From Promethearchaeota archaeon (GTDB lineage Archaea > Asgardarchaeota > Lokiarchaeia > Sigynarchaeales > SOKP01), in assembly GCA_014730295.1 (NCBI GenBank), contig WJIN01000498.1:1-23210 (forward strand): DNA of 23,210 nt. Direction: 5' to 3'. The translations under genes and the position numbers were made by a program. Each line of letters starts with the position of its first letter. The first letter of the stretch is position 1. The notes under the pieces are model-generated. The model did not search any database. It was given only the letters and a program-made list of their open reading frames with translations, and was not told the origin of the DNA. Positions 6,744-23,210 of this stretch are shown here, piece by piece.

Positions 6744-6749
6744 TAATAT

Positions 6750-12304: not shown

Positions 12305-12352
12305 TTTGTTTGTTAATTTTGGGCCTTACGCGACAAAACTTTTAAAATAATT

Positions 12353-12360
12353 ACTATAAT
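12353..12360 (+). promoter_or_regulatory. ACTATAAT element 3 nt before an ATG
   Basis: ACTATAAT is followed by GTT and the ATG at 12364, with no Shine-Dalgarno site between. The 59-nt gap before it (12305-12363) holds no other gene. If used as a -10 element, transcription would begin in or next to the start codon, giving a leaderless or near-leaderless message. Confidence 0.6.
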
Positions 12361-12363
12361 GTT

Positions 12364-13302
12364 ATGACAAAAGGTGAAAAATTAAAAGTAGAATTAGGTT
12401 TAAGTAAATTTAAATATGTTAAGATTTCTAGGGCTTTGATTACGTCAAGGCCTGTTTATTTAATTTTTTTCGATTCCTTTCGGCCTAATGTGCCTATTGT
12501 AAATTACAACATCGAAAACTTCCCGCATACTTTTAGAATATATTTAGGGCAAGATGGCTTTGATAAAATGCCGGTTATGACTCCTCCTCTAGACATTGAA
12601 GATTTTAATTCTTCAAAAAGTTCAGGGATTTTTTGTTTAATAGATATAGCAGGTCAAAAATATATTAATAAAAAGCTAACTAAAGACATAAAATATGAAT
12701 CGGTTATTTTGAAGGATTTGGCTAAAAATCAGGGGATGTCAGATTTTACTTTAGAATTTAGAAAAAAAAGAAATAAGGTGGGGCAAAGGGAAAACCTAGT
12801 AGCTAAATTAACAAATGTGGAAATAAACAAACCCGATAATAGCGTAACTTTTACTTGGGAAACCCCCCCAACTAAAAATGAAGAAAAACCTAAAATGAAA
12901 GTAGATCCTGAGATGAACTTTAAATTAGTTCCAGCGGATAGGTATACTTTACAAATAAAAATACTAGATTTTTTTGATTGGTTAGATACTAACCCAGATA
13001 TTACTATAATAAAGGCAAAGGATATAAAAGAAATCCTAGAAGTTAGTAATGTAAAGCTTTGGTCTAATGCGCCCTCTGATTGGTGGCAAGGGATCGTATG
13101 GAACCTAACCCAACTAGACGGGGCAATTTATCCTTGTAATATTAAACCGAAGCGGTGGAATGCTAAACATCTGCATAACGAAGAGGGGTTTTTAGGAAAA
13201 CATTTAGGGGGCCTTGTAAATCAAATGTCTTTTTTTTACAATCCGATGGCAAGCACACTATCTAAAAGATTGAGGGATGGGGGGTATCTTAACAATGAAT
13301 AA
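12364..13302 (+). CDS. Probable virion protein of unknown function, 312 aa
   Basis: First gene of the tail/neck module, started by an ACTATAAT element and lacking a Shine-Dalgarno site. Soluble, mixed alpha/beta, with strand-rich parts (YLIFFDSFRPNVPIVNYNIE; RENLVAKLTNVEI; NSVTFTWETPP) and a Trp-rich stretch DWWQGIVWNLTQL. The C-terminal part ends with FFYNPMASTLSKRLRDGG. The family is unknown to me; its place ahead of neck and sheath genes suggests a neck, head-completion or tail-assembly role. Confidence 0.65.
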   Translation: MTKGEKLKVELGLSKFKYVKISRALITSRPVYLIFFDSFRPNVPIVNYNIENFPHTFRIYLGQDGFDKMPVMTPPLDIEDFNSSKSSGIFCLIDIAGQKYINKKLTKDIKYESVILKDLAKNQGMSDFTLEFRKKRNKVGQRENLVAKLTNVEINKPDNSVTFTWETPPTKNEEKPKMKVDPEMNFKLVPADRYTLQIKILDFFDWLDTNPDITIIKAKDIKEILEVSNVKLWSNAPSDWWQGIVWNLTQLDGAIYPCNIKPKRWNAKHLHNEEGFLGKHLGGLVNQMSFFYNPMASTLSKRLRDGGYLNNE

Positions 13303-13561
13303 ATCTAAAGAAGTGGCTCTAATTGTATGGACTGTTTTAAAAGCCGGGTTGGTTATAGCAGGAATTATCTTTACTTATTTGTTTTTAAAGGGTCGGCGGT
13401 TTGGGGCGTTAGGGGAAGAAGTTTTAAAAAAGCAGGAAGATACCCGGATCAAGCTTGAAATAATTAAAACCCAAACTAAGAAGATAGTGCAAGAAAAAAA
13501 AGAGATATTTGCTAGACGAAAAGAAAGAAAAGAAAAAGCGACTAAATATATATATGACTGA
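13295..13561 (+). CDS. N-terminal TM plus coiled-coil protein, 88 aa (i-spanin-like layout)
   Basis: ATG at 13295 is chosen over 13277 because GGGGGT lies at a usual distance before it; it overlaps the preceding gene by 8 nt. One transmembrane helix (about residues 8-31, LIVWTVLKAGLVIAGIIFTY) is followed by a highly charged coiled coil rich in Lys and Glu to the end. N-terminal anchor plus periplasmic coiled coil is the layout of Rz-type i-spanins, and a signal-peptide protein lies two genes on. A role in lysis or a membrane scaffold is possible but not shown. Confidence 0.55.
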   Translation: MNKSKEVALIVWTVLKAGLVIAGIIFTYLFLKGRRFGALGEEVLKKQEDTRIKLEIIKTQTKKIVQEKKEIFARRKERKEKATKYIYD

Positions 13562-13931
13562 TGATTGGAAGATGAAAAGTTTAAGGCTTTGTATAAAGTA
13601 CTTAAATAAAATTTTTATGGAGATACCCAGTCAATTGGAAATAGCATATAAGAATGGTCGGGTAAAAAGTGTGGGTGTGTTGGTTCCTATTCAAAAAAAA
13701 CTAAGATTAAGGAATGTTTCAGGCGCTACGGAATACCCTATATTAGATAGGAGCTTTCCTAAAGTAGTAGGGCATTTTTTGTTTAGTTTTTCAGACGTTA
13801 TTTATTCTTCTTGGGGAATCTTGGTTTTACCGGATTTTACCGAAGTGTTTTATGAGGCAATGCCTGGTGAAAAAATTAAATATCCTCTATCTGACAGTAA
13901 GTTAAAGGAAGAATTAAGGAAGGTACTATGA
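13554..13931 (+). CDS. Hypothetical protein, 126 aa
   Basis: Start uncertain: ATG 13554 overlaps the previous gene by 8 nt but lacks a good ribosome site; TTG 13509 and ATG 13572 are alternatives. The product has a helical start (LRLCIKYLNKIFMEIPSQL) and strands ending with a hydrophobic part (VVGHFLFSFSDVIYSSWGIL). No family recognised. The stop overlaps the next ATG by 4 nt. Confidence 0.55.
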   Translation: MTDDWKMKSLRLCIKYLNKIFMEIPSQLEIAYKNGRVKSVGVLVPIQKKLRLRNVSGATEYPILDRSFPKVVGHFLFSFSDVIYSSWGILVLPDFTEVFYEAMPGEKIKYPLSDSKLKEELRKVL

Positions 13932-14368
13932 AAAAGTTAATTTTGATTTTTATGTTAATGGCGTCTAGCATATTTGCAAAAGATGTAAAAGTTCAAACTA
14001 ATGCTGGGGAAAAAGTTATTTCGGTTCCCGAAACAGCGCTTGAATTGGAAGCGGCTTTTATTGAAATGTGTATTTTGTACATTGAAGAAAGCGCAGACGC
14101 GGATGAACTTGAAAACAACTTAAAAGAAATGCTTGATATGATTAGAATAGCTAAAAAAGAAATACTAACTCAAAGGTATTTAATTAAAAAGTTAAGTAAA
14201 GCTAGGCCTTTAGGCTTTTTTGCTAATGGGGGCTTTTTGATTGATTTAGAAAAAACCCCTAGTTTTAATACTAACTTTGGACTTGTTTTGTTTAACCGTG
14301 TCAATGTAGGTGTGTTGATCAATTTTCCTAAATTTGAAATAGGTCTGATGGGTGGGGTAACTTTTTAA
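13928..14368 (+). CDS. Exported protein with beta-hairpin C-terminus, 146 aa
   Basis: Starts in an ATGA overlap with AAGGAAGG upstream. A clear signal peptide (about residues 1-18, KKLILIFMLMASSIFA-KD) leads to a helical, acidic middle region (about 35-90) and a C-terminal part of short alternating strands (GFFANGGFLIDL; NFGLVLFNRVNVGVLINF; FEIGLMGGVTF). A terminal Phe after alternating hydrophobic residues is the outer-membrane beta-barrel insertion signal, though only four or five strands are here, so a full barrel would need oligomers. Together with the anchored coiled coil at 13295 it could form a two-membrane system such as lysis or superinfection control. This is inference. Confidence 0.6.
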   Translation: MKKLILIFMLMASSIFAKDVKVQTNAGEKVISVPETALELEAAFIEMCILYIEESADADELENNLKEMLDMIRIAKKEILTQRYLIKKLSKARPLGFFANGGFLIDLEKTPSFNTNFGLVLFNRVNVGVLINFPKFEIGLMGGVTF

Positions 14369-15100
14369 ATGCCTGATTATTATTCTTATTATCCTGTCAA
14401 TAATTTATTAAACTCAATTTATGCTTTGAATATAGCCATAGAAAGTCATTTTGGAAATCTTCTTTTAGAGGGTGATTTAGGAAGAATTGTCTATGCCTCT
14501 AATGACTTTGCTTTAAGGCGGTGGGCTGAAAATAAAGCAAGATTGCCTATTGTAGATAATACAGGGAATCCTTACAATCTTCCTTTTTTTAATTACAAAC
14601 TTAAATCGGATGGGTATACTAATGGGACTAATCGGGCTTGGTTTTCTAATGCCGCTAATACTTATGGGATATGGGCGCCTGACTTAGGTAAAAAAATAAG
14701 AATGCTGAATGTTACTTTAGCGTATGAAGCTACCTTGTTTGTTATGCAAGACATTGATTCAATCTACACAGCGACTAATATGCTGTGGGATGATAGCAAT
14801 GAAACTATTTTAGATTATTATCTGCAAATTGATTCACAAGCGATTAAAAACATAGCAGTATTAAATTATGACATGGATTTTCAAGATAGATTTAATGAAA
14901 CTGATTGGCTTGAAAAAAACAATATTCGCACTGTGGGTTTTGACTTTAGCTTTGAAACTTTTATTATATTAGAAAACGCAGATATTCAGATTTCGGAAGA
15001 AGTGGCTTTAACTTTTTACAATTCTAAGTTTGGGCCTTTTACTGATATTAACGCGGAAACAAAAGAGTATATGGAAGCATTTCAAACCTATTGGGGGTAA
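14369..15100 (+). CDS. Putative tail sheath stabiliser/neck protein (T4 gp15-like)
   Basis: 243 residues; ATG directly follows the previous stop. The pattern of a Tyr-rich start (YYSYYPVNNLLNSIYALN), a LPFFNYKL segment, strand RMLNVTLAYEATLFVMQDID and TVGFDFSFETFI recalls T4 gp15-type proteins, which cap the tail and join it to the neck. The likeness is by eye only. The next gene is the tail sheath, as expected for a neck or tail-terminator gene. No signal or membrane segment. Confidence 0.6.
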   Translation: MPDYYSYYPVNNLLNSIYALNIAIESHFGNLLLEGDLGRIVYASNDFALRRWAENKARLPIVDNTGNPYNLPFFNYKLKSDGYTNGTNRAWFSNAANTYGIWAPDLGKKIRMLNVTLAYEATLFVMQDIDSIYTATNMLWDDSNETILDYYLQIDSQAIKNIAVLNYDMDFQDRFNETDWLEKNNIRTVGFDFSFETFIILENADIQISEEVALTFYNSKFGPFTDINAETKEYMEAFQTYWG

Positions 15101-15117
15101 TCTTTTCATATTAAAAA

Positions 15118-15125
15118 ACTATAAT
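15118..15125 (+). promoter_or_regulatory. ACTATAAT element before tail sheath
   Basis: ACTATAATATTAAAGGAG: the promoter-like element is followed after 5 nt by a Shine-Dalgarno AGGAG (15131-15135). The ATG at 15148 is 12 nt from that site, rather far. A usual start point about 7 nt downstream would begin the message at or inside the Shine-Dalgarno sequence. Confidence 0.6.
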
Positions 15126-15147
15126 ATTAAAGGAGACTGTTTGAAAA

Positions 15148-16965
15148 ATGGGACTTATAGATACTAGAATTACTGTTAATTTAGAAGATAGAAGCCAAAC
15201 TATTTTAGAAGATTTGTCTTATGTTGGTGGAACTAATATCAGGGCGCTAAAAGGGCCTGATGAACCTGTTTTAATTTTTCCCAAGCAAGAAAAATTAATT
15301 ACTCAAATGTTCGGTACGCCTACTTCAACTTATACTGATGTTTGGAACTTAATTGAGTATAACAAGAATTATCCGGTCTACGCTTGTTCTGCTACTGTCG
15401 GAGGAAGATACGGGGGGGTGTTAGTTACTAAGACTGGAACCGAAGCTTTTACGGGCGGATTTACAACCATCGATTCTATTAGCTTTTCGGCATTACAAAA
15501 CATTGAAATTTTAGGTACGGGGGATGCATCTACTACTACCTTTACCGCGTCATTATCTAATTATTTAGATTACAACGCTGAGACAGTTGATTTGATTGTT
15601 AATGGGACGGCTGTAAGCTTAACCGTATCTACTTTAGGTGTTACCGAAACATTAACCGCGACAGGAATCTACGCTGGAAGCGGTACTTTAAACACTTCCA
15701 CAGGGGATTTAAGCTTTACTTTCGATACCGCCCCGGCCAATAATGTAACCATTGAAGTTACTTATACGATTGATAGGAGTGATGATGTATATTTCTTACT
15801 TTACAATCCTTACCGGGAAGCGGATGATACAGCGGTTTTGATTACCTATGCTAGTAATTTATTTACAATTAAGCTCTATGATGTTAATTCTGATGGAACT
15901 TATACTGAAATCCAAGCTAGCCCTTTTCCGGTATCCCTAACCGAAGGAAGTAAAGATGGTTTTGGAATTAATAACTATATTGGTGATGTTTTTCAAGACA
16001 GCCATTATATAAGACCGATAATTAATACCGCTTTAGCCGTTACTACTTTTGTAGATGATACGGTGCAGATTGAATTAGATGGAGGTACAAGAGGAACTCA
16101 TAGCATTACTACGGGGTACAATTATTTTCAACAGGCCGAAAAATACCCGGTAGATTTATTTTTTGACGGCTCAGGTGAAGCGGATGTAATAACTGTTTTT
16201 GATTCTTTAAGTAAAAATTATCAAAAGTATGCCACTTATATTTTTGGGCTTCCTTTAGAGAGCGTGTCAAACGCATTAACTACTGTATCAGGTTATAGTC
16301 TAAACAATAACAATATTAAAGTATATTGGAATTATATGCAAATAAAGAACACTTACACCGATGGTACTTTTTACGCTTGTCCAATTGGAAGGATTGCTTA
16401 CAATCACGGTAAGAATAGGGAAAACTTTTATTCGGGGCGGCAAGTGTCTTGGATCAATGAAAATGAAGTTGGCGGGCAATTGGGGACAGGGTTTATTAGG
16501 GCCTATTATTCACCGCTTCCTTCTGAAGTTACTCAATTAGAAAATGCTAATATTAATCCGATCGTGTTTCACCCTGTTTACGGTGTAATGGTTACAAATG
16601 ACGCTACTCAGCAGACCATTACATCTGATTACTCTGATGGGGGTCACGTAGGGCTTAGAAATTATTTAGTTAATACTATTTTACAAGATGTTCTTCCTTT
16701 TCAGATCGATAAGCCGAATGACACTGAGCATAGGAACAATGTTAGAAGTCAAGTAGAGTTGATTATGTCCGGCCCCTCAGCTACCCCGGGATTACTAAAC
16801 TGGTATGTTGTTAAATGTGATGAAGAAAATAATAATGCGACTGTTAGGGCTAAGAAGCAATTTATTATTGAGGTTGCAGTACAATTTACACCATTTTCTA
16901 AAACTATTGTATTCAACTTTATTAACTATGGTCAAACTGTAGAAGTAAACGAAGCGTTTGTATAA
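15148..16965 (+). CDS. Contractile tail sheath protein
   Basis: 605 residues. The start (ITVNLEDRS, GGTNIRALKGPDEPVLIFP, FGTPTSTYTDVWNLIEY, YPVYACSATVGG) and the C-terminal domain (NWYVVKCDEENNNATVRAKK, IEVAVQFTPFSKTIVFNF) match the T4 gp18/phage sheath family. The protein forms the outer contractile tube. Residues about 110-215 form a Thr/Ser/Val-rich beta insertion with a GTLNTSTGDLSFTFDTAP stretch, probably a domain exposed on the tail surface; the sheath core does not need it. The frame has no odd features. The tail tube gene follows after 11 nt. Confidence 0.93.
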   Translation: MGLIDTRITVNLEDRSQTILEDLSYVGGTNIRALKGPDEPVLIFPKQEKLITQMFGTPTSTYTDVWNLIEYNKNYPVYACSATVGGRYGGVLVTKTGTEAFTGGFTTIDSISFSALQNIEILGTGDASTTTFTASLSNYLDYNAETVDLIVNGTAVSLTVSTLGVTETLTATGIYAGSGTLNTSTGDLSFTFDTAPANNVTIEVTYTIDRSDDVYFLLYNPYREADDTAVLITYASNLFTIKLYDVNSDGTYTEIQASPFPVSLTEGSKDGFGINNYIGDVFQDSHYIRPIINTALAVTTFVDDTVQIELDGGTRGTHSITTGYNYFQQAEKYPVDLFFDGSGEADVITVFDSLSKNYQKYATYIFGLPLESVSNALTTVSGYSLNNNNIKVYWNYMQIKNTYTDGTFYACPIGRIAYNHGKNRENFYSGRQVSWINENEVGGQLGTGFIRAYYSPLPSEVTQLENANINPIVFHPVYGVMVTNDATQQTITSDYSDGGHVGLRNYLVNTILQDVLPFQIDKPNDTEHRNNVRSQVELIMSGPSATPGLLNWYVVKCDEENNNATVRAKKQFIIEVAVQFTPFSKTIVFNFINYGQTVEVNEAFV

Positions 16966-16976
16966 AAGGAGAATTT

Positions 16977-17513
16977 ATGGCAATTTTAGAAGTATATGAA
17001 ACCGGGGATGATGCATTAGGAATTCATTTTGATTTTGATATAGCAAGCTTTGGGTTATTCCAACCTGGAAATATAAAATTTAGGACGACTACTTTTAATG
17101 TTCCAGGCATTACTTTAGGGACCTATACGATTGATTTTAAAGGTCAACATTTTGAAAAACCTAATTACAACGATGACACTTCCAAAGAATTTTCTTTCAC
17201 TTTGAGGCTTGATAAACAATACGAGGTTTACCGAAAGTTTGCATTTTGGTTATATTCAATTAAAAACATTTCTACTGGGGCAAATAGCGTAGATAAACCG
17301 GTAGTAGGGCCGTCTAAATTAAGAACTCCTGAAATTACTGTAGTAGCGACTGATGGTAACGCTCCTAATCCCACAGTGTTTCAGACTTGGCGATTTACAC
17401 AATGTTTCCCTAAAAGCATTAGTGATGTTTCTTTTGATAACACTGGTACGGACCCAATCACCCTAGACATTACTATGTCTTACTTAACGTTAAACACAGA
17501 TTTAACGGCTTAA
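16977..17513 (+). CDS. Tail tube protein (gp19-like)
   Basis: 178 residues; AAAAGGAG upstream of the ATG. The fold pattern fits T4 gp19-type tubes: FNVPGITLGTYTIDFKGQHF, then KEFSFTLRLDKQYEVYRKFAFWLYSI, and a C-terminal strand pair WRFTQCFPKSISDVSF and TLDITMSYLTLN. It makes the inner tube beneath the sheath. A strong terminator follows 20 nt after the stop, so sheath and tube form one transcript with the option of very high expression. Confidence 0.9.
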   Translation: MAILEVYETGDDALGIHFDFDIASFGLFQPGNIKFRTTTFNVPGITLGTYTIDFKGQHFEKPNYNDDTSKEFSFTLRLDKQYEVYRKFAFWLYSIKNISTGANSVDKPVVGPSKLRTPEITVVATDGNAPNPTVFQTWRFTQCFPKSISDVSFDNTGTDPITLDITMSYLTLNTDLTA

Positions 17514-17533
17514 ACATGATCCTCCTTTCTCTT

Positions 17534-17567
17534 GGGGAAGCCTTTAAAAGCTTCCCCTTTCTTTTTT
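17534..17567 (+). terminator. Intrinsic terminator after tail tube gene
   Basis: GGGGAAGC / GCTTCCCC arms of 8 bp (17534-17541, 17550-17557) with loop CTTTAAAA, followed by TTTCTTTTTT. It ends the sheath-tube transcript. The same hairpin core occurs at 20049-20070. Confidence 0.92.
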
Positions 17568-17568
17568 A

Positions 17569-17576
17569 ACTATAAT
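17569..17576 (+). promoter_or_regulatory. ACTATAAT element 3 nt before an ATG
   Basis: Directly follows the terminator's T-run; TATAAT, then AGC, then ATG at 17580, without a Shine-Dalgarno site. Because a terminator lies just upstream, the next gene needs its own start here, so this element is very likely a real promoter. Confidence 0.7.
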
Positions 17577-17579
17577 AGC

Positions 17580-18245
17580 ATGGCACTAGAATTAGATGAA
17601 CCTTTTATTGATGACCACATTAACTATGATTTCACTATTTCAATCGGTATTTCTGGTAAGATAAAAGATTTAATTAGTAAAGCCTTACCTAATTTAGAAT
17701 TTCCATCAAATAGATTATTAACAACAAAAGTCATGAATGTTAATATTCCTACTTATACGGCAGGAACCTATACTTACACATGGAATGGAATTCCGTTTGA
17801 AAAAGCTAATGGTAAAGATACTACGGAAAAAAAGTTTTCTATTACTTATCGGGTGGATTATCAATTTTTACTTCATAAGTTTTTTTTAAATTGGATTAGG
17901 TTTATCAATGAGCCTAGGAGCTTACCTTTTGATACAGAAATATCGTCTAACAGGGCGGGCAATGGGCTTTTAACTAGCCGCTTTTCGGCTTTACGTACCA
18001 TAATTACAATTGATTTATACGGCAAAAGATTGATACCTGAAAAATTGGAAGATGTGGAAAAAACCGTATCTTTTACCGATGTTAGAAACTATTTTAGGCA
18101 ATTGACTCCACAGCAAACTTTTGTTTTTCGGGGGGCTATGCCTGTTGATATTGAGGGCGGTAGTTATGATGTTGGCTCAGCGGAACCTACTACACGGACA
18201 GTTAATTTTGTTTATTTACAACATAAATTGGATGGTGGTTTTTAA
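17580..18245 (+). CDS. Second tail-tube-fold protein (gp19/gp54-like paralogue)
   Basis: 221 residues from ATG 17580. A longer frame from a TTG at 17532 would run through the terminator and promoter, so I reject it. The pattern is again that of the tube fold: MNVNIPTYTAGTYTYTWNGIPFEKANG, KKFSITYRVDYQFLLHKFFLNWIRFI and a strand TIITIDLYGKRL, followed by a C-terminal extension ending TRTVNFVYLQHKL. It parallels the 16977 gene (VPGITLGTYTIDFKGQHFEK...) closely, so the two probably arose by duplication. In T4 gp48 and gp54 are tube-fold baseplate proteins that start the tube, and this may be such an initiator. No ribosome site precedes it. Confidence 0.75.
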   Translation: MALELDEPFIDDHINYDFTISIGISGKIKDLISKALPNLEFPSNRLLTTKVMNVNIPTYTAGTYTYTWNGIPFEKANGKDTTEKKFSITYRVDYQFLLHKFFLNWIRFINEPRSLPFDTEISSNRAGNGLLTSRFSALRTIITIDLYGKRLIPEKLEDVEKTVSFTDVRNYFRQLTPQQTFVFRGAMPVDIEGGSYDVGSAEPTTRTVNFVYLQHKLDGGF

Positions 18246-18797
18246 ATGATTTTGTATGATAAGAACGAAGAGCTGCTTGAAGAGTATCAAATTATTAGTA
18301 ACCATTTTTTAACTATTCCCAGGGATGGATTTTCACAAATAACTACCCCCTGGATTTCTGGAAAAATAAAATCTTCAAATCTTCCCTTAAATAAAATAGA
18401 TTCGGAAACTTTAGCCGGAGGAAAAAAGATTTTATCGGGGGTTACTTTTCCCGATGCGGTATCTTTTGAAATTTACGAAAACACGGATTTTTCTACTTAT
18501 CAATTTTTTGATAAATGGTTATCTAATAATTATGACGCAGAAAGATGTATATTTTATCCGAAGGGCAAGCCCGACAAAAGAAATTGTACCGTTGAGTTTT
18601 TTAATACAATTGTTGGGGGGTTATTTGCTAAAACCCCTAATAATACAGTAAAAGCTTCTTTTAGTATGTACAATTGTATGTGCTTAGGAATTGAACCTAC
18701 TTCTTTAAGTCAAGAAAATAATGAGCCTTTAACTTATACGGTTACTTTATCTGTGGATCAAATCAAAAATTCATACTATGACCGTGCTTTACTATAA
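18246..18797 (+). CDS. Third tail-tube-fold protein
   Basis: 183 residues; ATG touches the previous stop, with GGTGG upstream. The middle reads as tube fold: LSGVTFPDAVSFEIYEN, DFSTYQFFDKWLSNNYD, FYPKGKPDKRNCTVEFFNT, KASFSMYNCMCLGIEPTSL and TYTVTLSVDQI, like T4 gp19-type proteins with a W in the long helix and a late strand pair. Probably a baseplate-tube junction protein. Its stop codon overlaps the promoter element of the next gene. Confidence 0.72.
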   Translation: MILYDKNEELLEEYQIISNHFLTIPRDGFSQITTPWISGKIKSSNLPLNKIDSETLAGGKKILSGVTFPDAVSFEIYENTDFSTYQFFDKWLSNNYDAERCIFYPKGKPDKRNCTVEFFNTIVGGLFAKTPNNTVKASFSMYNCMCLGIEPTSLSQENNEPLTYTVTLSVDQIKNSYYDRALL

Positions 18798-18798
18798 T
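18791..18798 (+). promoter_or_regulatory. ACTATAAT element overlapping a stop codon
   Basis: ACTATAATATTAAAAGGGGGG; the element includes the TAA of the 18246-18797 gene and lies 20 nt before the ATG at 18819. A Shine-Dalgarno run of Gs (18806-18811) follows, so the message has a short normal leader. Confidence 0.6.
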
Positions 18799-18818
18799 AT
18801 TAAAAGGGGGGATTACTA

Positions 18819-19904
18819 ATGCCTGATTTAAGATACAAAGAAGAAGAAACTAAACCTTCGGTGGATACTACAAAAAAAACAAAAGAAATGCCTTACGGAT
18901 ATACAAAAGTAAAACTTGATTCACTTGGGAAATTATACGCGCCTAAAGAATTGCATTTTAGAAATTTTACGGTAGAAGAACTAACCGACTTAGCGGCGGC
19001 CAATGATAGCAAAGACGCACTAAAGGTTTTTGTACGCTGTTTAAACAATATGGTTCATGAAAATTTTGATTGTAAGTTTTTAACTGAGAAAGATCTGGAA
19101 GAAGTTTTAATGACCTTGAATATTCGCTGGGGGAAGGTCTTTAAAAATGTGCCTTATTTATATGCTGAAAAAGAAGAGGATCTTGAAGAAGCTAACACGC
19201 TTTTAAAAGAAAACTTAGAAATCCAAGGGAAGGCTTTCAAAGAAATTAAAAACTTGGACAGTAAAGAAAATGTTGGATACGCGGATTTACCTATGACCAA
19301 TCTTAAAACAAAAGAATTAGCGGGGGACGTTGGTCCTATTTTTAATATGACTACTACTGAGGGTGAATCCGTTAAATTGAAAATTGCTTGCGTTGGTGAT
19401 TTTATTGAAGTTCAAGATTATATTGAAAATATTTATTTTGAAAAAGAAAGAAAGTTTAGTGACTTTAAATTGCAATACGCTAAGTATAAGCAGATTGAAG
19501 AGGAGATTAGGCTTGCTAATCGGGAAAGAACCGAAGAATTAATTAATATGCTGCCTAAGCTTGATTTTACTATTTTAGAAGAATATGAAGATTTTTTAAA
19601 ACAAAAAGAATCAGATTTTTTTAAAGTAATAGAAGCTTCTTTGATTGTATCTTATGGAAAAAAGAAATGTGAAACACTAAAAGAAAAGGTTACGGCTAAC
19701 AAAAAAATAGGAAGCCATTTTTGGGAAAAGTACTCTAAAATCATGAGGAATAATTTTGAGTACGGTATTTTGCCCGAAGTTACTTTTTTTAGTGTTGATC
19801 TAGGAAAAACCATTGAAAGGAGGTTTTCCTTTCGATACTTGGATTTTATACAAAAAGTGGAATCTGCAACAGATACAGACATTGAAGTATCATTTAGTCG
19901 ATGA
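18819..19904 (+). CDS. Tail assembly chaperone (T4 gp26/gpG-like)
   Basis: 361 residues. The first part (TKVKLDSLGKLYAPKELHFR, NFTVEELTDLAAANDSKDAL, DCKFLTEKDLEEVLMTL) resembles the T4 gp26-type baseplate/tail chaperone opening: a 'L-x-S-x-G-K-x-Y' strand and a helical core. A long coiled-coil region (about 200-260) and a C-terminal helical part follow. It lies between the tube genes and, past the inserted block, the tape measure gene, exactly where gpG-type chaperones lie. The end overlaps a +1-shifted frame (19804-20040), the usual set-up of a G/GT programmed frameshift. Near the overlap is an AAAGGAGG sequence that could pause ribosomes. Confidence 0.75.
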   Translation: MPDLRYKEEETKPSVDTTKKTKEMPYGYTKVKLDSLGKLYAPKELHFRNFTVEELTDLAAANDSKDALKVFVRCLNNMVHENFDCKFLTEKDLEEVLMTLNIRWGKVFKNVPYLYAEKEEDLEEANTLLKENLEIQGKAFKEIKNLDSKENVGYADLPMTNLKTKELAGDVGPIFNMTTTEGESVKLKIACVGDFIEVQDYIENIYFEKERKFSDFKLQYAKYKQIEEEIRLANRERTEELINMLPKLDFTILEEYEDFLKQKESDFFKVIEASLIVSYGKKKCETLKEKVTANKKIGSHFWEKYSKIMRNNFEYGILPEVTFFSVDLGKTIERRFSFRYLDFIQKVESATDTDIEVSFSR

Positions 19905-20040
19905 GTTTCCCGGATGGACTTACAGAGATATTGATCAAATGCTGGGGTGGGAGTTAGCAGACTTAGTTAATAGATTGAATAAAGATAAAGAAAGACAGAA
20001 ACGTAAAACACAAAATTGTCCATTATTAAAAGTAAATTAA
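19813..20040 (+). CDS. Probable chaperone frameshift extension (GT-like)
   Basis: Open from 19804 (after a TAG at 19801) in the +1 frame relative to the preceding gene, with a possible TTG start at 19813 (75 residues). The useful part appears to be the C-terminal stretch HLVDEFPGWTYRDIDQM LGWELADL followed by a basic tail, which looks like the short helical extension of GT-type chaperones. A shift near TTT CGA (19830-19835), after the Shine-Dalgarno-like AAAGGAGG (19816-19823), would fuse it to the chaperone. A separate weak start is also possible (AGGA at 19802-19805). Ends just before a terminator. Confidence 0.55.
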   Translation: MKGGFPFDTWILYKKWNLQQIQTLKYHLVDEFPGWTYRDIDQMLGWELADLVNRLNKDKERQKRKTQNCPLLKVN

Positions 20041-20048
20041 AAAAATTA

Positions 20049-20078
20049 GGGAAGCCTTTAAAAGCTTCCCCTTTTTTT
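20049..20078 (+). terminator. Terminator between convergent genes
   Basis: GGGAAGC / GCTTCCC arms with loop CTTTAAAA and seven Ts after it. The opposite strand also has a T-run after the stem (TAATTTTTTT), so it can stop transcripts from both sides. It duplicates the hairpin at 17534-17557, with a 22-nt identical core. Confidence 0.9.
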
Positions 20079-20091
20079 ATTACAAATCGTT

Positions 20092-20316
20092 TCACTCATC
20101 TACAATTACTTTAATTTTTCCACTTAATTCGACCTTTCCATTAAGAACATTATTTTTAATTTGGTTAATTAAGTGTTTAAGGTCATTAAGATCAAGACCG
20201 CCATCCCCTAGGTTTTGTTCCCAAATACGGGCTTCAGGATTTTCCGAATCAGTTACCAATCTAAAACTGAAATCTGCAAGATAAGCTTCGGTCATATTGT
20301 TAATCGAGGTCTTCAT
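20092..20316 (-). CDS. Small hypothetical protein, 74 aa
   Basis: Leftward gene with ATG at 20316, preceded by GGGAGAA. Mixed and acidic (MTEAYLADFSFRLVTDSEN; LDLNDLKHLINQIKNNVL; VELSGKIKVIVDE). Overlaps the next upstream gene by 17 nt. Last gene of the leftward block, facing the terminator at 20049. No family recognised. Confidence 0.55.
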   Translation of the reverse strand: MKTSINNMTEAYLADFSFRLVTDSENPEARIWEQNLGDGGLDLNDLKHLINQIKNNVLNGKVELSGKIKVIVDE

Positions 20317-20503
20317 CTAAATTCTCCCAGCCTTTATTTAAAATCTTCCTAGCTTCTTTAAGGGAGTCTCCTTGAAAGTACAAACTAAGATTTTTTAAAA
20401 TATAAAAAGCTCCTTCTAAGGTGTTTACATTACAATCTATAATTTCGGTAATCTCATCAAGGGAAAAAGGTATTTCCGATAATTGTTTATTATTAATTTC
20501 CAT
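20300..20503 (-). CDS. Small hypothetical protein, 67 aa
   Basis: ATG at 20503 with GGAG upstream, overlapping the upstream gene by 11 nt. Acidic, helical (SEIPFSLDEITEIIDCNVNT; LKEARKILNKGWENL). AT-rich like the phage body. Unknown. Confidence 0.55.
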   Translation of the reverse strand: MEINNKQLSEIPFSLDEITEIIDCNVNTLEGAFYILKNLSLYFQGDSLKEARKILNKGWENLDEDLD

Positions 20504-20738
20504 TAGGTTCTCCTTTCTTTATTAAAATTAGCGCGCCATTAAAAAGATACGCTACTAGCTTTGTCCTAGTTAATTTTAGGTTTTTAACTTCGGACCAGTC
20601 GTAAGGTAATTTTCCTGTCCTGTAGCAGGATTGCCACAGGAAACTAGCATCAAAATTACCAAAGTTTTTCATAATCTTCCGAAATTCATTCAAAAGATCG
20701 GAAGAATAAATTTCAATAATTTTCTTCTTTGTTTCCAT
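20493..20738 (-). CDS. Small hypothetical protein, 81 aa
   Basis: ATG at 20738 after AAGGGGTG. A helical first half (KIIEIYSSDLLNEFRKIMKN), then SFLWQSCYRTGKLPYDWSEV and a hydrophobic stretch LVAYLFNGALILI that is too short and charged around for a sure membrane span. AT-rich; 17 nt downstream of the GC-richer gene at 20756. Unknown. Confidence 0.55.
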   Translation of the reverse strand: METKKKIIEIYSSDLLNEFRKIMKNFGNFDASFLWQSCYRTGKLPYDWSEVKNLKLTRTKLVAYLFNGALILIKKGEPNGN

Positions 20739-20755
20739 ATTTCACCCCTTTTTGC

Positions 20756-21139
20756 TTATTGATTAGCTTCACAGTCACCATAGCAGTAACTGTTGCATTT
20801 TTGGCAATAGCCAATAATATTCCTGATCTGCGGGGAGATAGAAACAGCCTCAATATCGGACATTGCGTATACAGTGCAATGTCCGCCGCCTGACCACATA
20901 CAGTTAATAGTGGCCACGGCGCCTAGCCCCTTAACACTAACTTCTCTCCCCTCACGGGTTTTGGCTGCATTACCCAGCCAACCGTAAGAGTCATCAACCC
21001 TTACGGCAATTTTTCCGTGCTCGGCCTCAAGCATGTTAAGGCACTCCGCATAACTAATTGCCAAGTCTTCTCCAGGGATAGACCTGGACTTGTCCACAGA
21101 ATAGTCGGCCACGACTATCTTGGCCCAGCTATACCCCAA
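20756..21139 (-). CDS. Cysteine-rich accessory protein, start or frame uncertain
   Basis: 127 residues from a TTG at 21139 (weak AGGA upstream). A soluble mixed protein (WAKIVVADYSVDKSRS; EDLAISYAECLNMLEAEHGK; SGGGHCTVYAMSDIEAVSI) ends with a Cys cluster CQKCNSYCYGDC (C-x2-C-x3-C-x3-C), perhaps a small metal-binding tail. Codon use is GC-richer than the phage's. The structured leader that should serve this gene ends in an ATG at 21207 in another frame; a -1 shift at GGGG (21134-21137) would join ...RTPWG to YSWAK smoothly. So the true product may be about 150 residues, or the copy may be broken. Its place beside a ring nuclease suggests another anti-defence protein, which is inference. Confidence 0.55.
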   Translation of the reverse strand: MGYSWAKIVVADYSVDKSRSIPGEDLAISYAECLNMLEAEHGKIAVRVDDSYGWLGNAAKTREGREVSVKGLGAVATINCMWSGGGHCTVYAMSDIEAVSISPQIRNIIGYCQKCNSYCYGDCEANQ

Positions 21140-21207
21140 GGCGTCCTGGGGTTTCCGGCATAGTCCGCCGGAATTAAATTAATTGTTCTAGTTTTTTTCG
21201 TATTCAT
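21115..21207 (-). CDS. Short frame after structured leader, possible N-terminus of next gene
   Basis: ATG at 21207 with an excellent GGAGGAAACT ribosome site opens 30 codons (MNTKKTRTINLIPADYAGNP, then RTPWGIAGPR) before TAG. It overlaps the 20756-21139 frame. It is either a short leader peptide coupling translation of that gene, or its real N-terminus joined by a -1 shift (programmed, or a mutation/sequence error). Confidence 0.45.
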   Translation of the reverse strand: MNTKKTRTINLIPADYAGNPRTPWGIAGPR

Positions 21208-21210
21208 AGT

Positions 21211-21256
21211 TTCCTCCGTCCCGGCTCTATGGCCGGACCTGATTTTTTAATGCGTC
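21211..21256 (-). promoter_or_regulatory. Structured 5' leader, copy 1
   Basis: Read on the minus strand: GACGC, an A-run, then a stem GTCCGGC / GCCGGGAC (one bulged G, loop CATAGA) directly followed by the GGAGG ribosome site and an ATG at 21207. About 45 nt are nearly the same as the leader at 22066-22112. An upstream GTCT / AGAC mini-hairpin precedes it. No promoter could be found between the terminator at 21268 and this leader. Confidence 0.65.
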
Positions 21257-21267
21257 TATACAGACAC

Positions 21268-21308
21268 AAAAAAAGCCCATGCGTAGATAGAACCTACGCA
21301 TGGGCTTT
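21268..21308 (-). terminator. Strong terminator after ring nuclease gene
   Basis: Perfect 15-bp stem (21272-21286 with 21294-21308), 7-nt loop, followed on the minus strand by a run of seven Ts. It starts 3 nt past the ring nuclease stop. It separates that gene from the next leftward leader. Confidence 0.9.
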
Positions 21309-21311
21309 ATC

Positions 21312-21812
21312 TTATCCCCAGGCCTCTGGGTCAAAGAAGTGCGGAAAGTGTTTTTCCGCACATTCCAAGATGGCTTTAGGGCCGTCGTCCGGCCATTCCA
21401 TCTTGGCACAGGCGCGAGACATCTCCGCGTAGAGAGCCTCGCGTCTGTCCTGCATAGAAGCCTTGTGGCACGTAACTTCGTACCACTCGATTTTTGCCCC
21501 CTCCGGAAGGAGAGTGCAACCCTCTGGCAACCGTGGGCCAACGTACTGGCCCACGATGACGGTGTCCCCTGGTTCCAGGGCGACACTAATTCGCTTGCTA
21601 GGCACAGTGTAGCCTAGCAAATCGGACATAACGGCCGCTATGTCCTTATGTCCGACACAAGATACGGCCCTTAAGCCATATCCTATGCGGCCGTGATCAA
21701 GCCTAATTGCTCCGATCACGGCCTCTTTTGCGTCATCAAGAGTTATCTTCCTTGATGACGCTGAGTGTTCCCCCTGCATTTGCAGGGAGAAGGCATTAGC
21801 TATATACATCAT
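21312..21812 (-). CDS. AcrIII-1 family viral ring nuclease (DUF1874), with C-terminal extension
   Basis: 166 residues from ATG 21812, with GAGGAGGAGGTG close upstream; a longer frame start is not needed. AcrIII-1 enzymes cleave cyclic tetra-adenylate, the alarm made by type III CRISPR effectors, and so switch off Csm6/Can-type nucleases. Matching features: MYIANAFSLQM at the start (Ser9), VSCVGHKDIAAVMSDLLGYT with the catalytic His55, KRISVALEPGDTVIVGQYVGPRLPEG with Arg94, and IEWYEVTC at the end of the core. The known SIRV1 protein is about 114 residues; here ~48 more residues (119-166, charged helix, then FPHFFDPEAWG) follow, of unknown use. GC-richer than the phage, so likely acquired. Second gene of the leftward promoter, 1 nt after the previous stop. 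Confidence 0.87.
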   Translation of the reverse strand: MMYIANAFSLQMQGEHSASSRKITLDDAKEAVIGAIRLDHGRIGYGLRAVSCVGHKDIAAVMSDLLGYTVPSKRISVALEPGDTVIVGQYVGPRLPEGCTLLPEGAKIEWYEVTCHKASMQDRREALYAEMSRACAKMEWPDDGPKAILECAEKHFPHFFDPEAWG

Positions 21813-21813
21813 A

Positions 21814-22062
21814 TTACACCTCCTCCTCGAAAGCCGCCGTCTGAGCGGCTTCCCGTGCGGCAGTCTCGTGCCGCAATTCCCAAGCACGGAGACCACGCAG
21901 GGGCGCAGTCAGGGCGCACCAGGCTTTAAGCCTGAGCACGCCCCAACGGCCCCAATAGGCCAGGGTCAGGGCCGTTCTCGGCCCTAGTCCCACTAGATGT
22001 GGGACTTCATAATGCGGGTACAGCCCGCATTTTTCAAAAATCGATTCTCTTAATCCTTTCAT
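21814..22062 (-). CDS. Small basic protein co-transcribed with ring nuclease, 82 aa
   Basis: ATG at 22062 right after the structured leader's GGAGG. Composition Arg/Ala/Leu/Trp-rich (GPRTALTLAYWGRWGVLRLK; ALTAPLRGLRAWELRHETAA), ending acidic (FEEEV). Clearly GC-rich codons. No signal or sure membrane segment; no family known. Its stop lies 1 nt before the ring nuclease start, so the two are translationally coupled. It could be an Acr-associated regulator or a second anti-defence protein, but nothing in the sequence decides this. Confidence 0.5.
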   Translation of the reverse strand: MKGLRESIFEKCGLYPHYEVPHLVGLGPRTALTLAYWGRWGVLRLKAWCALTAPLRGLRAWELRHETAAREAAQTAAFEEEV

Positions 22063-22065
22063 ATT

Positions 22066-22112
22066 TTCCTCCGTCCCGGCTCTATGGCCGGACTTGATTT
22101 TTTTAAGGCGTC
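22066..22112 (-). promoter_or_regulatory. Structured 5' leader, copy 2
   Basis: Same leader as at 21211-21256: A-run, GTCCGGC / GCCGGGAC stem with CATAGA loop, then GGAGG and ATG (22062). An upstream second hairpin (AAGGC-A-GTC / GAC-GCCTT, loop AGTAA) lies just before it. The conserved stem next to the ribosome site suggests control of translation or RNA stability. Confidence 0.7.
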
Positions 22113-22134
22113 TTACTGACTGCCTTATAGTATT

Positions 22135-22163
22135 AATATACTACACAATCCGATTTTTGTCAA
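22135..22163 (-). promoter_or_regulatory. Sigma70-type promoter of leftward accessory block
   Basis: On the minus strand, TTGACA (22158-22163), 17-bp spacer, TATATT (22135-22140). Near-consensus host promoter, so probably active immediately on infection. A start near 22128 gives a ~65-nt leader. An A/T-run region (22164-22192) just upstream could act as an UP element. Confidence 0.85.
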
Positions 22164-22203
22164 GTATTTTTTTAAAAAAATTTAAAAAAAATTGGGCAGT
22201 TTT

Positions 22204-22244
22204 AGGACTTACCCAGGTCCTGTTTGTAGAAACCAAACAGCAGG
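22204..22244 (+). other. Two adjoining hairpins in the divergent gap
   Basis: AGGAC / GTCCT (22204-22208, 22217-22221) and a perfect CTGTTTG / CAAACAG stem (22220-22226, 22234-22240, loop TAGAAAC). They lie between the leftward sigma70 promoter and the rightward tape measure promoter, with no T-run, so not a standard terminator. They share a base region and could form alternative structures or an operator. The rest of this gap (to 22287) is AT-rich with nothing else I can see. Confidence 0.4.
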
Positions 22245-22287
22245 TATTTATATTATACCCAGATTTATTAGATTATACAACACTTTA

Positions 22288-22295
22288 ACTATAAT
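22288..22295 (+). promoter_or_regulatory. ACTATAAT element 3 nt before tape measure ATG
   Basis: TATAAT, then ATT, then ATG at 22299 with no Shine-Dalgarno site. Same spacing as at 12353 and 17569. It lets the tape measure be expressed in spite of the terminator and reverse block before it. Confidence 0.65.
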
Positions 22296-22298
22296 ATT

Positions 22299-23210
22299 AT
22301 GGCAGATATACCCATTCTAACGGAAAGGGAAGAGAACCCTTTAACGGAAACATCCAAAATAATAGAATCTTTCTCATCCACAATAAAAGAGCTTATTGAC
22401 GAAATAAAGACATTAAAAAAACCGAACCCTCAGCCTAACCCGCAGGAAATTAGTTCAAACAAATCGGAACTCCCAAGTAAGGAGGCTAATAAAAAAACAC
22501 AAGAGCAGGTATGGGAAGAATCATATCTAAAGCGTACTGTAGATGGAATTAAATCATCTTTTACTAAGATGGAAGATGTTACTCGAAAAAACTCACAAGA
22601 GTTTACTAAACAGTTAGCTACTAACCTAGCAGGGCCTTTCAATCTTTTACTAAAACCTATGACAGAATTTTTTGGAATAGATATTTTTGAATGGCTTTTT
22701 AAAAAAGATGAAAGTGTTAAACCTAAAGAATCTAGCTTACTAAAAGATGGTGGAGCTATTGGGGCGGCCATGGTGTGGTTTAAACGGTCTCAGGATGAAG
22801 ATGAAGAAGATAAGAAGGGCATACTAGGATTTTTACAAGGCCTTTTGGGAAGCATCGGTAAATTTTTAGGCCCGCTCTTTAAAGCTCTAGGCCTAGGGGC
22901 TTTGATTGCGGGAATAGCCTGGGCAATCATAGACGGTATATCTGGTTATTTCTTGTCTGATGAGTGGGGAGTGTCAAAAGTATCAGGAATTTTGGGCGGA
23001 ATTTTTGGCGGAACGGGGCAGGGTATCAAAGGAGCTTTCGCTAATGCGGGGAAATGGGCCCTAATTGGGGTCGGAGTCGGTTTTTTTGCGGGAGGACCTC
23101 TAGGCGCTATAGCCGGGGGGATTTTAGGCGCTGTTTTCGGGGGGATTCTAGGTTATGTAGGTGGTAAAAATCTAGCTAAAAGTTTTGATATGATTGGCGC
23201 AAATATTCAA
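22299..23210 (+). CDS. Tape measure protein, 5' part
   Basis: Open from ATG 22299 to the window end (304 residues seen). Charged, Pro/Lys/Glu-rich N-terminus (about 1-75), then a helical region (TRKNSQEFTKQLATNLAGPF) and, from about residue 170, hydrophobic Gly/Ala-rich helices (FLGPLFKALGLGALIAGIAW; WALIGVGVGFFAGGPLGAIA). That mix is typical of tape measure proteins, which set tail length and enter the host envelope with the DNA. The position after chaperone genes fits, with the anti-defence block as the interruption. The C-terminal part and any peptidase or lysozyme domain lie outside the window. Confidence 0.78.
   Translation, partial: MADIPILTEREENPLTETSKIIESFSSTIKELIDEIKTLKKPNPQPNPQEISSNKSELPSKEANKKTQEQVWEESYLKRTVDGIKSSFTKMEDVTRKNSQEFTKQLATNLAGPFNLLLKPMTEFFGIDIFEWLFKKDESVKPKESSLLKDGGAIGAAMVWFKRSQDEDEEDKKGILGFLQGLLGSIGKFLGPLFKALGLGALIAGIAWAIIDGISGYFLSDEWGVSKVSGILGGIFGGTGQGIKGAFANAGKWALIGVGVGFFAGGPLGAIAGGILGAVFGGILGYVGGKNLAKSFDMIGANIQ

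What the first reader, a model, noticed from the sequence alone, without database searches (positions are those of the whole stretch)
21312..21812. AcrIII-1-type ring nuclease with an extra C-terminal region
The protein carries the hallmarks of the DUF1874/AcrIII-1 anti-CRISPR enzyme (AFS near the N-terminus, VGH with His55, the G-P-R-L-P-E-G region) and would destroy cyclic tetra-adenylate, disabling type III CRISPR. About 48 residues beyond the usual core are unaccounted for. They might add dimerisation, substrate choice or a second function. Its host should therefore have, or have had, a type III system.
Basis: partly seen in the sequence, partly recalled or inferred. Interest (0 to 1): 0.88.

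Follow-up and report, generated by a model that had tools for sequence, protein, structure and literature searches.

The report
Anti-CRISPR gene with tightly folded mRNA
A phage gene that looks like a known CRISPR-disarming enzyme also has its coding message folded into back-to-back hairpins far beyond what its protein requires, which might help the message survive the RNA-attacking defence that its enzyme is expected to switch off.

Summary

The larger surprise is in the DNA. The coding sequence is 14 hairpins end to end (-263 kcal/mol against -174 for synonymous recodings; z -13 to -14; -10 when dinucleotides are also kept). 28 backbone genes have mean z -0.5. Across 52 non-redundant DUF1874 genes the mean z is -2.8, against -1.4 for size-matched neighbours and -0.4 for 41 Tad2-like anti-defence genes. 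Two of five homologue pairs show clear preservation of pairing. Hyperthermophile-virus copies and most copies in one bacterial phylum are not folded.

Best reading: a functional ring nuclease whose mRNA has been selected to fold, plausibly to escape type III crRNA pairing or cA4-activated ssRNases. Folding above chance: near certain. Selection: likely. The purpose: inferred, about 1 in 3.

The parts
21312..21812 (-). DUF1874/AcrIII-1-type ring nuclease gene, 166 aa (core residues 1-116, extension 117-166)
21317..21791 (-). 14 consecutive predicted mRNA hairpins tiling the coding sequence; 13 have 8 or more pairs (60 synonymous shuffles: mean 6.0, max 11)
   Evidence: z -14.4 and -12.9 (whole gene), -12.8 (first 450 nt), -10.1 with dinucleotides also kept
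21648..21650 (-). codon of His55 (aligned with catalytic His47 of SIRV1 gp29)
   Evidence: invariant in 68 aligned proteins
21315..21464 (-). C-terminal extension, residues 117-166; predicted helices 120-139 and 143-155
21814..22062 (-). 82-aa ORF of unknown function directly upstream, placed for translational coupling; folded CDS (z -4.8 to -6.0)
22058..22103 (-). 46-nt leader repeat, copy 1: CCGGC-loop-GCCGG hairpin plus ribosome-binding site before the 82-aa ORF (folding as such not above shuffles, z -1.4)
21203..21248 (-). 46-nt leader repeat, copy 2 (96% identical), before the next minus-strand gene
22135..22163 (-). sigma-70-like promoter TTGACA-17-TATATT (11 of 12), best match in 12000-22400; consensus match only
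   Evidence: a site this good (up to 1 mismatch to the pattern) occurs in 31 of 100 shuffles of the window
21272..21308 (-). strong intrinsic-terminator-like hairpin (15-bp perfect arms) followed by a T run
   Evidence: fold z -8.2
20756..21139 (-). minus-strand ORF of unknown function, GC 0.49, folded CDS (z -5.3 to -7.6)
20493..20738 (-). minus-strand ORF of unknown function, mildly folded CDS (z -2.6 to -3.5)
20041..22298 (.). accessory block between the tail-assembly-chaperone-like ORF and the tape-measure gene; absent at the same place in related phage contigs L074 and L075

Best explanation
The gene encodes a dimer-type ring nuclease of the DUF1874/AcrIII-1 family. It binds cyclic tetra-adenylate in a pocket with His55, Arg74, Arg94 and Glu97 and cuts it, so that Csx1/Csm6-type effectors of type III CRISPR are not activated (inferred from family, fold and conserved residues). 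A two-helix C-terminal extension, shared by a set of relatives, probably packs on or tunes the core (inferred). The gene is part of a horizontally acquired minus-strand accessory block with a promoter-like site, repeated leaders and a terminator. Its coding RNA folds into 14 back-to-back hairpins, far beyond what the protein or codon usage requires (shown by computation). A good part of other viral ring nuclease genes share a weaker form of this (shown: 21 of 52 below z -3). The folding is kept by selection on the RNA (likely), most plausibly because the message must be made and translated while type III complexes pair with viral transcripts and cA4-activated ribonucleases cut single-stranded RNA: a tightly folded message offers little to either (inferred).
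For: Protein. Extension. Accessory block: GC3 0.52-0.59 against 0.27 +- 0.02 in 19 backbone genes; site without the block in two related contigs. Folding of this gene: 8 perfect inverted repeats (stem 7 or more) against a mean of 1.2 (max 6) in 200 synonymous shuffles, MFE -263.5 against -174.2, z -14.4; z -12.6 against dinucleotide shuffles, 0 of 100 as low; z -10.1 with synonymous plus dinucleotide null; 28 plus-strand genes mean z -0.51, lowest -1.96. mRNA strand stronger: -263.5 against -234.0, 17 G-U pairs against 5. Family: 52 non-redundant DUF1874 genes mean z -2.76 (21 below -3) against 191 size-matched neighbours -1.42 (p 1.5e-5), lower than own neighbours in 40 of 52 loci; against 41 Tad2-like genes -0.44 (p 6e-8; metagenome contigs only: -2.52, n 45, against -0.41, n 33, p 2e-6). 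Substitutions between L015 and L083, and between L054 and L064, break fewer pairs than a synonymous null (0 to 6 of 300 nulls as low in the four directions).
Against: Not universal. SIRV1 gp29, the characterised AcrIII-1, has z +0.45 (rank 25 of 36 genes); four other Sulfolobales virus copies lie between -1.41 and +0.62; in the three plasmid copies tested (-6.34, -2.62, -4.90) one other gene of the locus is folded more. Of ten loci in genomes of the phylum of Thermoanaerobacterium nine were scored: eight lie between -2.28 and +0.92, and the one folded copy (L100) is the same gene as L015/L070, so not independent; their mean, -1.17, equals that of 17 neighbours, -1.19. 31 of the 52 lie above -3 and in 12 of 52 loci the gene is not below its neighbours. 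Neighbouring genes of unknown role are folded too, here and in L040, L046, L052, L054. The excess on the mRNA strand is as large in neighbours. Two-sided compensations exceed the null clearly in only two of nine directions, and pair preservation fails for L046/L030 and is weak for L042/L043 and L003/L019. No assay, no host, no type III system shown; 0 of 5 genomes carrying DUF1874 loci had a Cas10 palm match (most are metagenome bins).
Confidence: 0.4

Rival explanations
1. An AcrIII-1 ring nuclease whose folded message serves ordinary gene expression: longer mRNA life against host RNases, slowed or coupled translation, or low dosage of an early gene. It has nothing to do with type III CRISPR.
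For: Selection for high CDS structure occurs in all domains (PMC6544989, abstract and section 2.2 read). Adjacent genes of unknown role are folded. Neighbours also show the mRNA-strand excess.
Against: Another small anti-defence family, Tad2-like, shows none of it. The ring nuclease is more folded than size-matched neighbours, and in L015, L020, L023, L025 and L047 it is the most folded gene among neighbours mostly near zero (ten loci chosen for strong folding).
Confidence: 0.35
2. The hairpins are a mutational footprint: template switching turns imperfect palindromes into perfect ones in the genome where the cassette evolved, without selection.
For: Perfect inverted repeats of 7 to 11 bp inside the ring nuclease ORF. 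Intergenic leader and terminator are palindromes too. Cassette composition is foreign.
Against: 17 G-U pairs on the mRNA strand against 5 on the other, which a DNA mechanism would not favour; pair-keeping substitutions in two homologue pairs; recurrence in unrelated contigs in the same protein family but not in Tad2-like genes.
Confidence: 0.15
3. The protein binds but does not usefully cut cA4 (a sponge), or acts on another cyclic nucleotide, with the two-helix extension changing specificity.
For: An extension beyond the solved relatives; no assay.
Against: The catalytic histidine and the other conserved residues are present and invariant or nearly so in 68 proteins; high-confidence core fold.
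Confidence: 0.08

Closest known systems
AcrIII-1, SIRV1 gp29 (PDB 6SCF, 2X4I), STIV B116, AFV3-109
   Different: Two-helix C-terminal extension; SIRV1 gp29 coding RNA is not folded (z +0.45)
Crn2 and the Csx1-Crn2 fusion of Marinitoga (PDB 8Y7F, 8Y7G, 8Y6Z; PMC7293037, passages read)
   Different: Crn2 lies in a host type III locus; there the partner domain is N-terminal
Csx16, another cA4 ring nuclease (PADLOC model PDLC01147; PMC12409355, passages read)
   Same: PADLOC's Csx16 model matches residues 49-103 (E 1.9e-10, 39.4 bits); the paper reports a structural similarity between Csx16 and AFV3-109
   Different: Pfam's DUF1874-type model covers residues 2-101 including the N-terminal motif; no Csx16 structure was compared here
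Thermoanaerobacterium phage THSA-485A DUF1874 protein
   Same: Best match in the search of 50,697 phage records, 37% over residues 2-122; CDS also folded (L010, z -3.3)
   Different: Core only, about 102 aa
Genome-scale ordered RNA structure (GORS) of RNA viruses (PMC3695492, abstract read) and structural selection on CDS (PMC6544989, abstract and section 2.2 read)
   Same: Coding RNA folded beyond controls that keep the protein; in the first paper linked to fitness and persistence in the host
   Different: Here single accessory genes of a DNA phage are folded, not a whole RNA genome

Membership tests
DUF1874 / AcrIII-1 ring nuclease | Profile match over the core | tested here: met
   PF08960 38.3 bits against cut-off 26
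DUF1874 / AcrIII-1 ring nuclease | AcrIII-1 fold | tested here: met
DUF1874 / AcrIII-1 ring nuclease | Catalytic His47 equivalent and conserved pocket residues | tested here: met
   H55, N6, S9, R74, R94, E97 align with H47, N8, S11, R66, R85, E88. H47 is cited in PMC7213978 (passages); the roles of the others are recalled
DUF1874 / AcrIII-1 ring nuclease | Homodimer with shared pocket | not testable with these tools
   only single chains can be predicted
DUF1874 / AcrIII-1 ring nuclease | cA4 cleavage that disables type III immunity | not testable with these tools
   needs an assay
DUF1874 / AcrIII-1 ring nuclease | Encoded by a virus or mobile element | tested here: met
   Lies between tail sheath and tube genes on one side and a tape-measure gene on the other
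Crn2 (host type III accessory) | Lies in a type III CRISPR locus | tested here: inconclusive
   Flanked by phage tail genes; 10 window proteins against PADLOC gave only the ring nuclease itself; not every ORF was scanned and no CRISPR array search was run
Csx16 | Csx16 profile match | tested here: inconclusive
   PADLOC Csx16 model matches residues 49-103, E 1.9e-10, but the DUF1874 model explains more of the protein; the two families were not separated by a tree here
Genome-scale ordered RNA structure (GORS) | Folding beyond controls across the whole genome | tested here: not met
   Only accessory genes are folded; 28 backbone genes of the window mean z -0.51

The most novel reading that the evidence does not exclude
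DNA phages protect anti-type III genes with a second, RNA-level counter-defence: the coding sequence of the ring nuclease, and of genes beside it, is written as a hairpin array so that the message escapes crRNA pairing and cA4-activated single-strand ribonucleases long enough to be translated and shut the system off. Excess CDS folding would then be a sequence-only signature of genes that counter RNA-targeting defences, and the unknown folded neighbours (82-aa ORF, 20756-21139, the islands in L046, L052, L054) would be candidates for the same role.
Probability: 0.3. Interest if true: 0.93.

Novelty: new variant of a known kind. Interest (0 to 1): 0.8.

Why it matters
The enzyme alone is a new branch of a known anti-CRISPR family. 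The folded message would matter more. It raises a question that has an experimental answer: how does a phage express the inhibitor of an RNA-targeting defence while that defence is acting on its transcripts? If folding is the answer, it is a counter-defence strategy written in synonymous codons, invisible to protein-based searches, and measurable in any phage genome. It also gives a way to pick out counter-defence candidates among genes of unknown function. The ten full-text searches made here listed no paper whose title or shown abstract describes folded coding sequences of anti-CRISPR genes; several lists were cut (15 of 37, 12 of 91, 8 of 18), and most subscription papers are absent from that library.

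Tried and rejected
Longer GTG start (194 aa): set aside; Shine-Dalgarno and homologues favour ATG 21812.

Close relatives of the extended protein with DNA context: none in viral contigs with the single sequence; 68 DUF1874 loci with the alignment and 5 in genome contigs. A profile of the extension found nothing better than E 0.9 in the ORFs of these loci and nothing better than E 0.16 in ten further loci. So the nucleotide folding of the extended set itself could be read only in the window.

Tree of cores to follow the gain of the extension: few columns, mostly unresolved; 17 of 204 proteins dropped for lack of the motif; the extension needed 8 changes; no conclusion drawn. My regular expression for tail type B assigned none there.

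Rfam: no match at gathering threshold; one sub-threshold match, RF00236 at 21264-21337, 30.3 bits against 45, E 0.0015, overlaps the terminator and is taken as chance.

mRNA-strand excess as proof specific to ring nucleases: rejected, neighbours show it equally. Universality over the family: rejected. GC content as driver: gene GC does not correlate with z (rho 0.04), but the excess of gene GC over locus GC does weakly (rho -0.29, p 0.036), and the gene is GC-richer than its locus in 44 of 52. Cas10 in five DUF1874-bearing genomes: 0 of 5, uninformative because most are metagenome bins.

DNA relatives of the cassette in phages and plasmids: none. Protein relatives of the 82-aa ORF and of 20756-21139 in phages: none; of 20756-21139 in viral contigs and in four related phage records: none. 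Relatives by DNA polymerase in viral contigs: none. Leader pattern in viral contigs: none.

Full report

The extension. The model gives helices 120-139 and 143-155 after the last core strand. Relatives P0002-P0016 and P0019 align over 86 to 99% of the query, tail included. A profile of the tail from these 16, without the window protein, scores the window tail 44.9 bits, against at most 10.3 for shuffles of it (972 of 1000 scored). With a profile of all 17, 34 of 204 DUF1874 proteins gathered carry the tail at domain E 1e-5 or better, the 17 included. The tail is less conserved than the core (mean pairwise identity 0.43 against 0.69), most at its end (consensus KHFPQYF.ENAFD). Other DUF1874 proteins carry different tails. 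Pfam gave no family for it in 25 members beyond single-member matches at E 0.03 to 0.2, and no solved fold stands out. Its function stays open.

Where it sits. The window is a contractile-tail phage: tail sheath, clamp loader, DNA polymerase, tail tube and, weakly (E 2.4e-4), tape measure. Minus-strand genes fill 20041-22298 between a tail-chaperone-like ORF and the tape measure. In the related contig L074 (sheath 38% identical) the counterpart genes touch: the ORF matching 19813-20040 ends at 14255 where the ORF matching 22299 onward (31% over 126 residues, E 3e-7) starts. In L075 152 nt separate the chaperone-like gene from a large ORF at the tape-measure place, which I assign by position only. 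The ring nuclease, the 82-aa ORF and the gene at 20756-21139 have GC3 0.52-0.59, against 0.27 +- 0.02 in 19 backbone genes. A 46-nt leader with hairpin and ribosome-binding site occurs twice (22058-22103, 21203-21248; its folding is not above shuffles). The best sigma-70-like site of 12000-22400 lies upstream (22163-22135), though 31 of 100 shuffles of the window hold one as good. A strong terminator-like hairpin follows the gene. This is an accessory cassette, probably with its own expression signals. None of four related phage contigs has a PF08960 match (the records may be fragments, and L076 and L077 give the same matches).

The unexpected feature. Reading the minus strand, the coding DNA looked like a chain of inverted repeats. 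Counts confirmed it: 9 perfect repeats with stems of 8 or more in 21001-22000 against 0.3 in shuffles; no other of the 23 kilobases has more than 4. Against shuffles that keep the protein and codon usage the ring nuclease gene has 8 repeats (stem 7 or more) instead of 1.2, and a folding energy of -263.5 instead of -174.2 +- 6.2, z -14.4 (z -12.9). Against dinucleotide shuffles z is -12.6, 0 of 100 as low. Against a null that keeps protein, codons and dinucleotides z is -10.1. The structure is 14 hairpins tiling 21317-21791, 13 with 8 or more pairs (60 shuffles: mean 6.0, max 11). Local pairing covers 0.64 of the sequence against 0.42 +- 0.06. The 82-aa ORF (z -4.8 to -6.0) and 20756-21139 (-5.3 to -7.6) share it, 20493-20738 mildly (-2.6 to -3.5), 20092-20503 not. 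The 28 plus-strand genes (first 450 nt at most) have mean z -0.51, lowest -1.96. The mRNA strand folds better than its complement (-263.5 against -234.0), with 17 G-U pairs against 5.

Is it a property of the family? In 73 DUF1874 loci (68 viral contigs, 5 bacterial contigs) the mean z over the first 300 nt is -3.09, against -1.10 for 146 large neighbours. After reduction to 52 clusters at 75% protein identity it is -2.76; 21 of 52 lie below -3 and 8 below -5. 191 size-matched neighbours have -1.42; the gene is lower than its own neighbours in 40 of 52 loci (Mann-Whitney p 1.5e-5; paired p 5e-5). One strongly folded neighbour is itself a second DUF1874 gene (L071). With the stricter null: -2.11 for 52 against -1.04 for 90 of the 191 neighbours, p 3e-4. 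Tad2-like genes (Pfam name; the anti-Thoeris role is recalled), a small anti-defence family not aimed at RNA targeting, served as control: the best 80 of 206 viral loci, 41 clusters, mean z -0.44, no different from 74 of their neighbours (-0.66), p 6e-8 against the ring nucleases. Restricted to metagenome contigs, with 7 of 52 and 8 of 41 left out: -2.52 (n 45) against -0.41 (n 33), p 2e-6. The two families live in different phages, so host and phage differences are not fully controlled; the ring nucleases' neighbours (-1.42) are also more folded than the Tad2 neighbours (-0.66). In some loci the ring nuclease lies in a folded island (L040, L046, L052, L054); in others it is the most folded gene among neighbours mostly near zero (L015, L020, L023, L025, L047, ten loci chosen for strong folding).

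Results against a general rule. SIRV1 gp29 is unfolded (z +0.45, rank 25 of 36 genes), and four other Sulfolobales virus copies lie between -1.41 and +0.62; a Methanobacteriales phage copy has -2.13 (rank 5 of 10), and three plasmid copies -6.34, -2.62 and -4.90, each second in its locus (8 of the 19 annotated hits H1-H14 and H45-H49 were fetched, plus SIRV1). A survey of 398 genomes of the phylum of Thermoanaerobacterium gave ten loci; nine were scored; eight lie between -2.28 and +0.92, and the ninth (L100, -7.1) is the gene already counted as L015/L070. Hairpins would be weaker at the growth temperature of Sulfolobales hosts, and copies in bacterial genomes meet other pressures; both remarks are inference, and the folded Thermus aquaticus plasmid copy does not fit a simple temperature rule.

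Selection or accident. For five homologous pairs, nine directions, I asked whether substitutions break predicted pairs less than random synonymous choices at the same codons would. L083 to L015: 16 broken against 28 (0 of 300 nulls as low), 8 two-sided compensations against 4.6 (1 of 300 as many). L015 to L083: 6 of 300, compensations as in the null. L054 to L064: 1 of 300, compensations 6 against 4.4. L064 to L054: 0 of 300, compensations 7 against 4.3 (5 of 300; 62 pairs lay in gaps). L042/L043: 30 and 12 of 300. L046/L030: not kept (64 and 199 of 300), yet both messages are more stable than the null (z -2.1 and -5.6), as if folding were kept while the stems changed. L003 to L019: 28 of 300, and the L019 message is not more stable than its null (+0.6). 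This supports selection on RNA folding in some lineages. The mRNA-strand excess is also present in neighbours (72 of 110) and is not specific to ring nucleases (p 0.53).

Mechanism. Shown: family, fold, conserved residues, shared extension, accessory block, excess folding. Likely: selection on RNA folding. Inferred: the folding lets the message persist in a cell where type III complexes scan transcripts and cA4-activated ribonucleases cut single-stranded RNA. Gebert and colleagues (PMC6544989, abstract and section 2.2 read) asked whether viral ORFs fold to escape small-RNA immunity; they first doubted it because most ORFs show nothing, then called the idea revived because viruses have more folded ORFs than cells. 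They report 2.3% of viral ORFs in the top class under codon shuffling. The contrast between an anti-type III family and Tad2-like genes is the new element. Expression needs (stability, translation control) and mutation by template switching remain rivals.

Comparison with what is known. AcrIII-1 was the commonest ring nuclease in 28,114 phage genomes, present in 36 (PMC12409355, passages read). Crn2 is the cellular form and occurs fused to Csx1 (PMC7293037, passages read). The window protein belongs to this family as an extended variant. Genome-scale ordered RNA structure of RNA viruses (PMC3695492, abstract read) resembles the folding but concerns whole RNA genomes. The ten full-text searches listed no paper whose title or shown abstract describes folded coding sequences of anti-CRISPR genes.

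Noticed in passing
21115-21207 (-) and 20756-21139 (-): The second leader and its ribosome-binding site point at an ATG (21207) whose frame closes after about 30 codons, while the long ORF behind it is in another frame and opens only at a TTG: a frameshift (natural or from sequencing) or a short leader ORF.
   Followed up: no
18819-19904 and 19813-20040 (+): Overlapping ORF pair before the tape measure, with counterparts in L074 (13127-14128 and 14025-14255): looks like the frameshifted tail-assembly-chaperone arrangement (recalled).
   Followed up: partly
L046 8831-11189, L052 9407-10574, L054 9599-11336: Islands of small genes of unknown function with strongly folded coding sequences (several with z -4 to -9) around ring nuclease genes in viral contigs.
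   Followed up: partly
DUF1874 proteins P0143-P0145, P0017, P0022, P0033 and others: The ring nuclease core carries at least four dissimilar C-terminal tails (judged by eye), one about 110-150 residues long; ten proteins scanned showed no Pfam family above cut-off besides PF08960 (the P0033 type was not scanned).
   Followed up: partly
22105-22127 and 21249-21270: Imperfect inverted repeats of the GTC-N-GAC kind, seen by eye, lie directly upstream of both leader copies and might be operator sites.
   Followed up: no
5913-7970 (+): Two adjacent genes whose sequences resemble a NeuB-like sialic acid synthase and a CMP-sugar synthetase joined to a phosphatase-like part (recalled; PHROG matches weak): possible surface-sugar genes in a phage.
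   Followed up: no
17534-17557 and 20049-20070: The same terminator-like palindrome (GGGAAGCCTTTAAAAGCTTCCC) occurs twice, once at the start of the ORF 17532-18245.
   Followed up: no
L071 10647-10965: A second DUF1874 gene 335 nt from the first in a Saccharibacteria bin, also folded (z -5.6).
   Followed up: no
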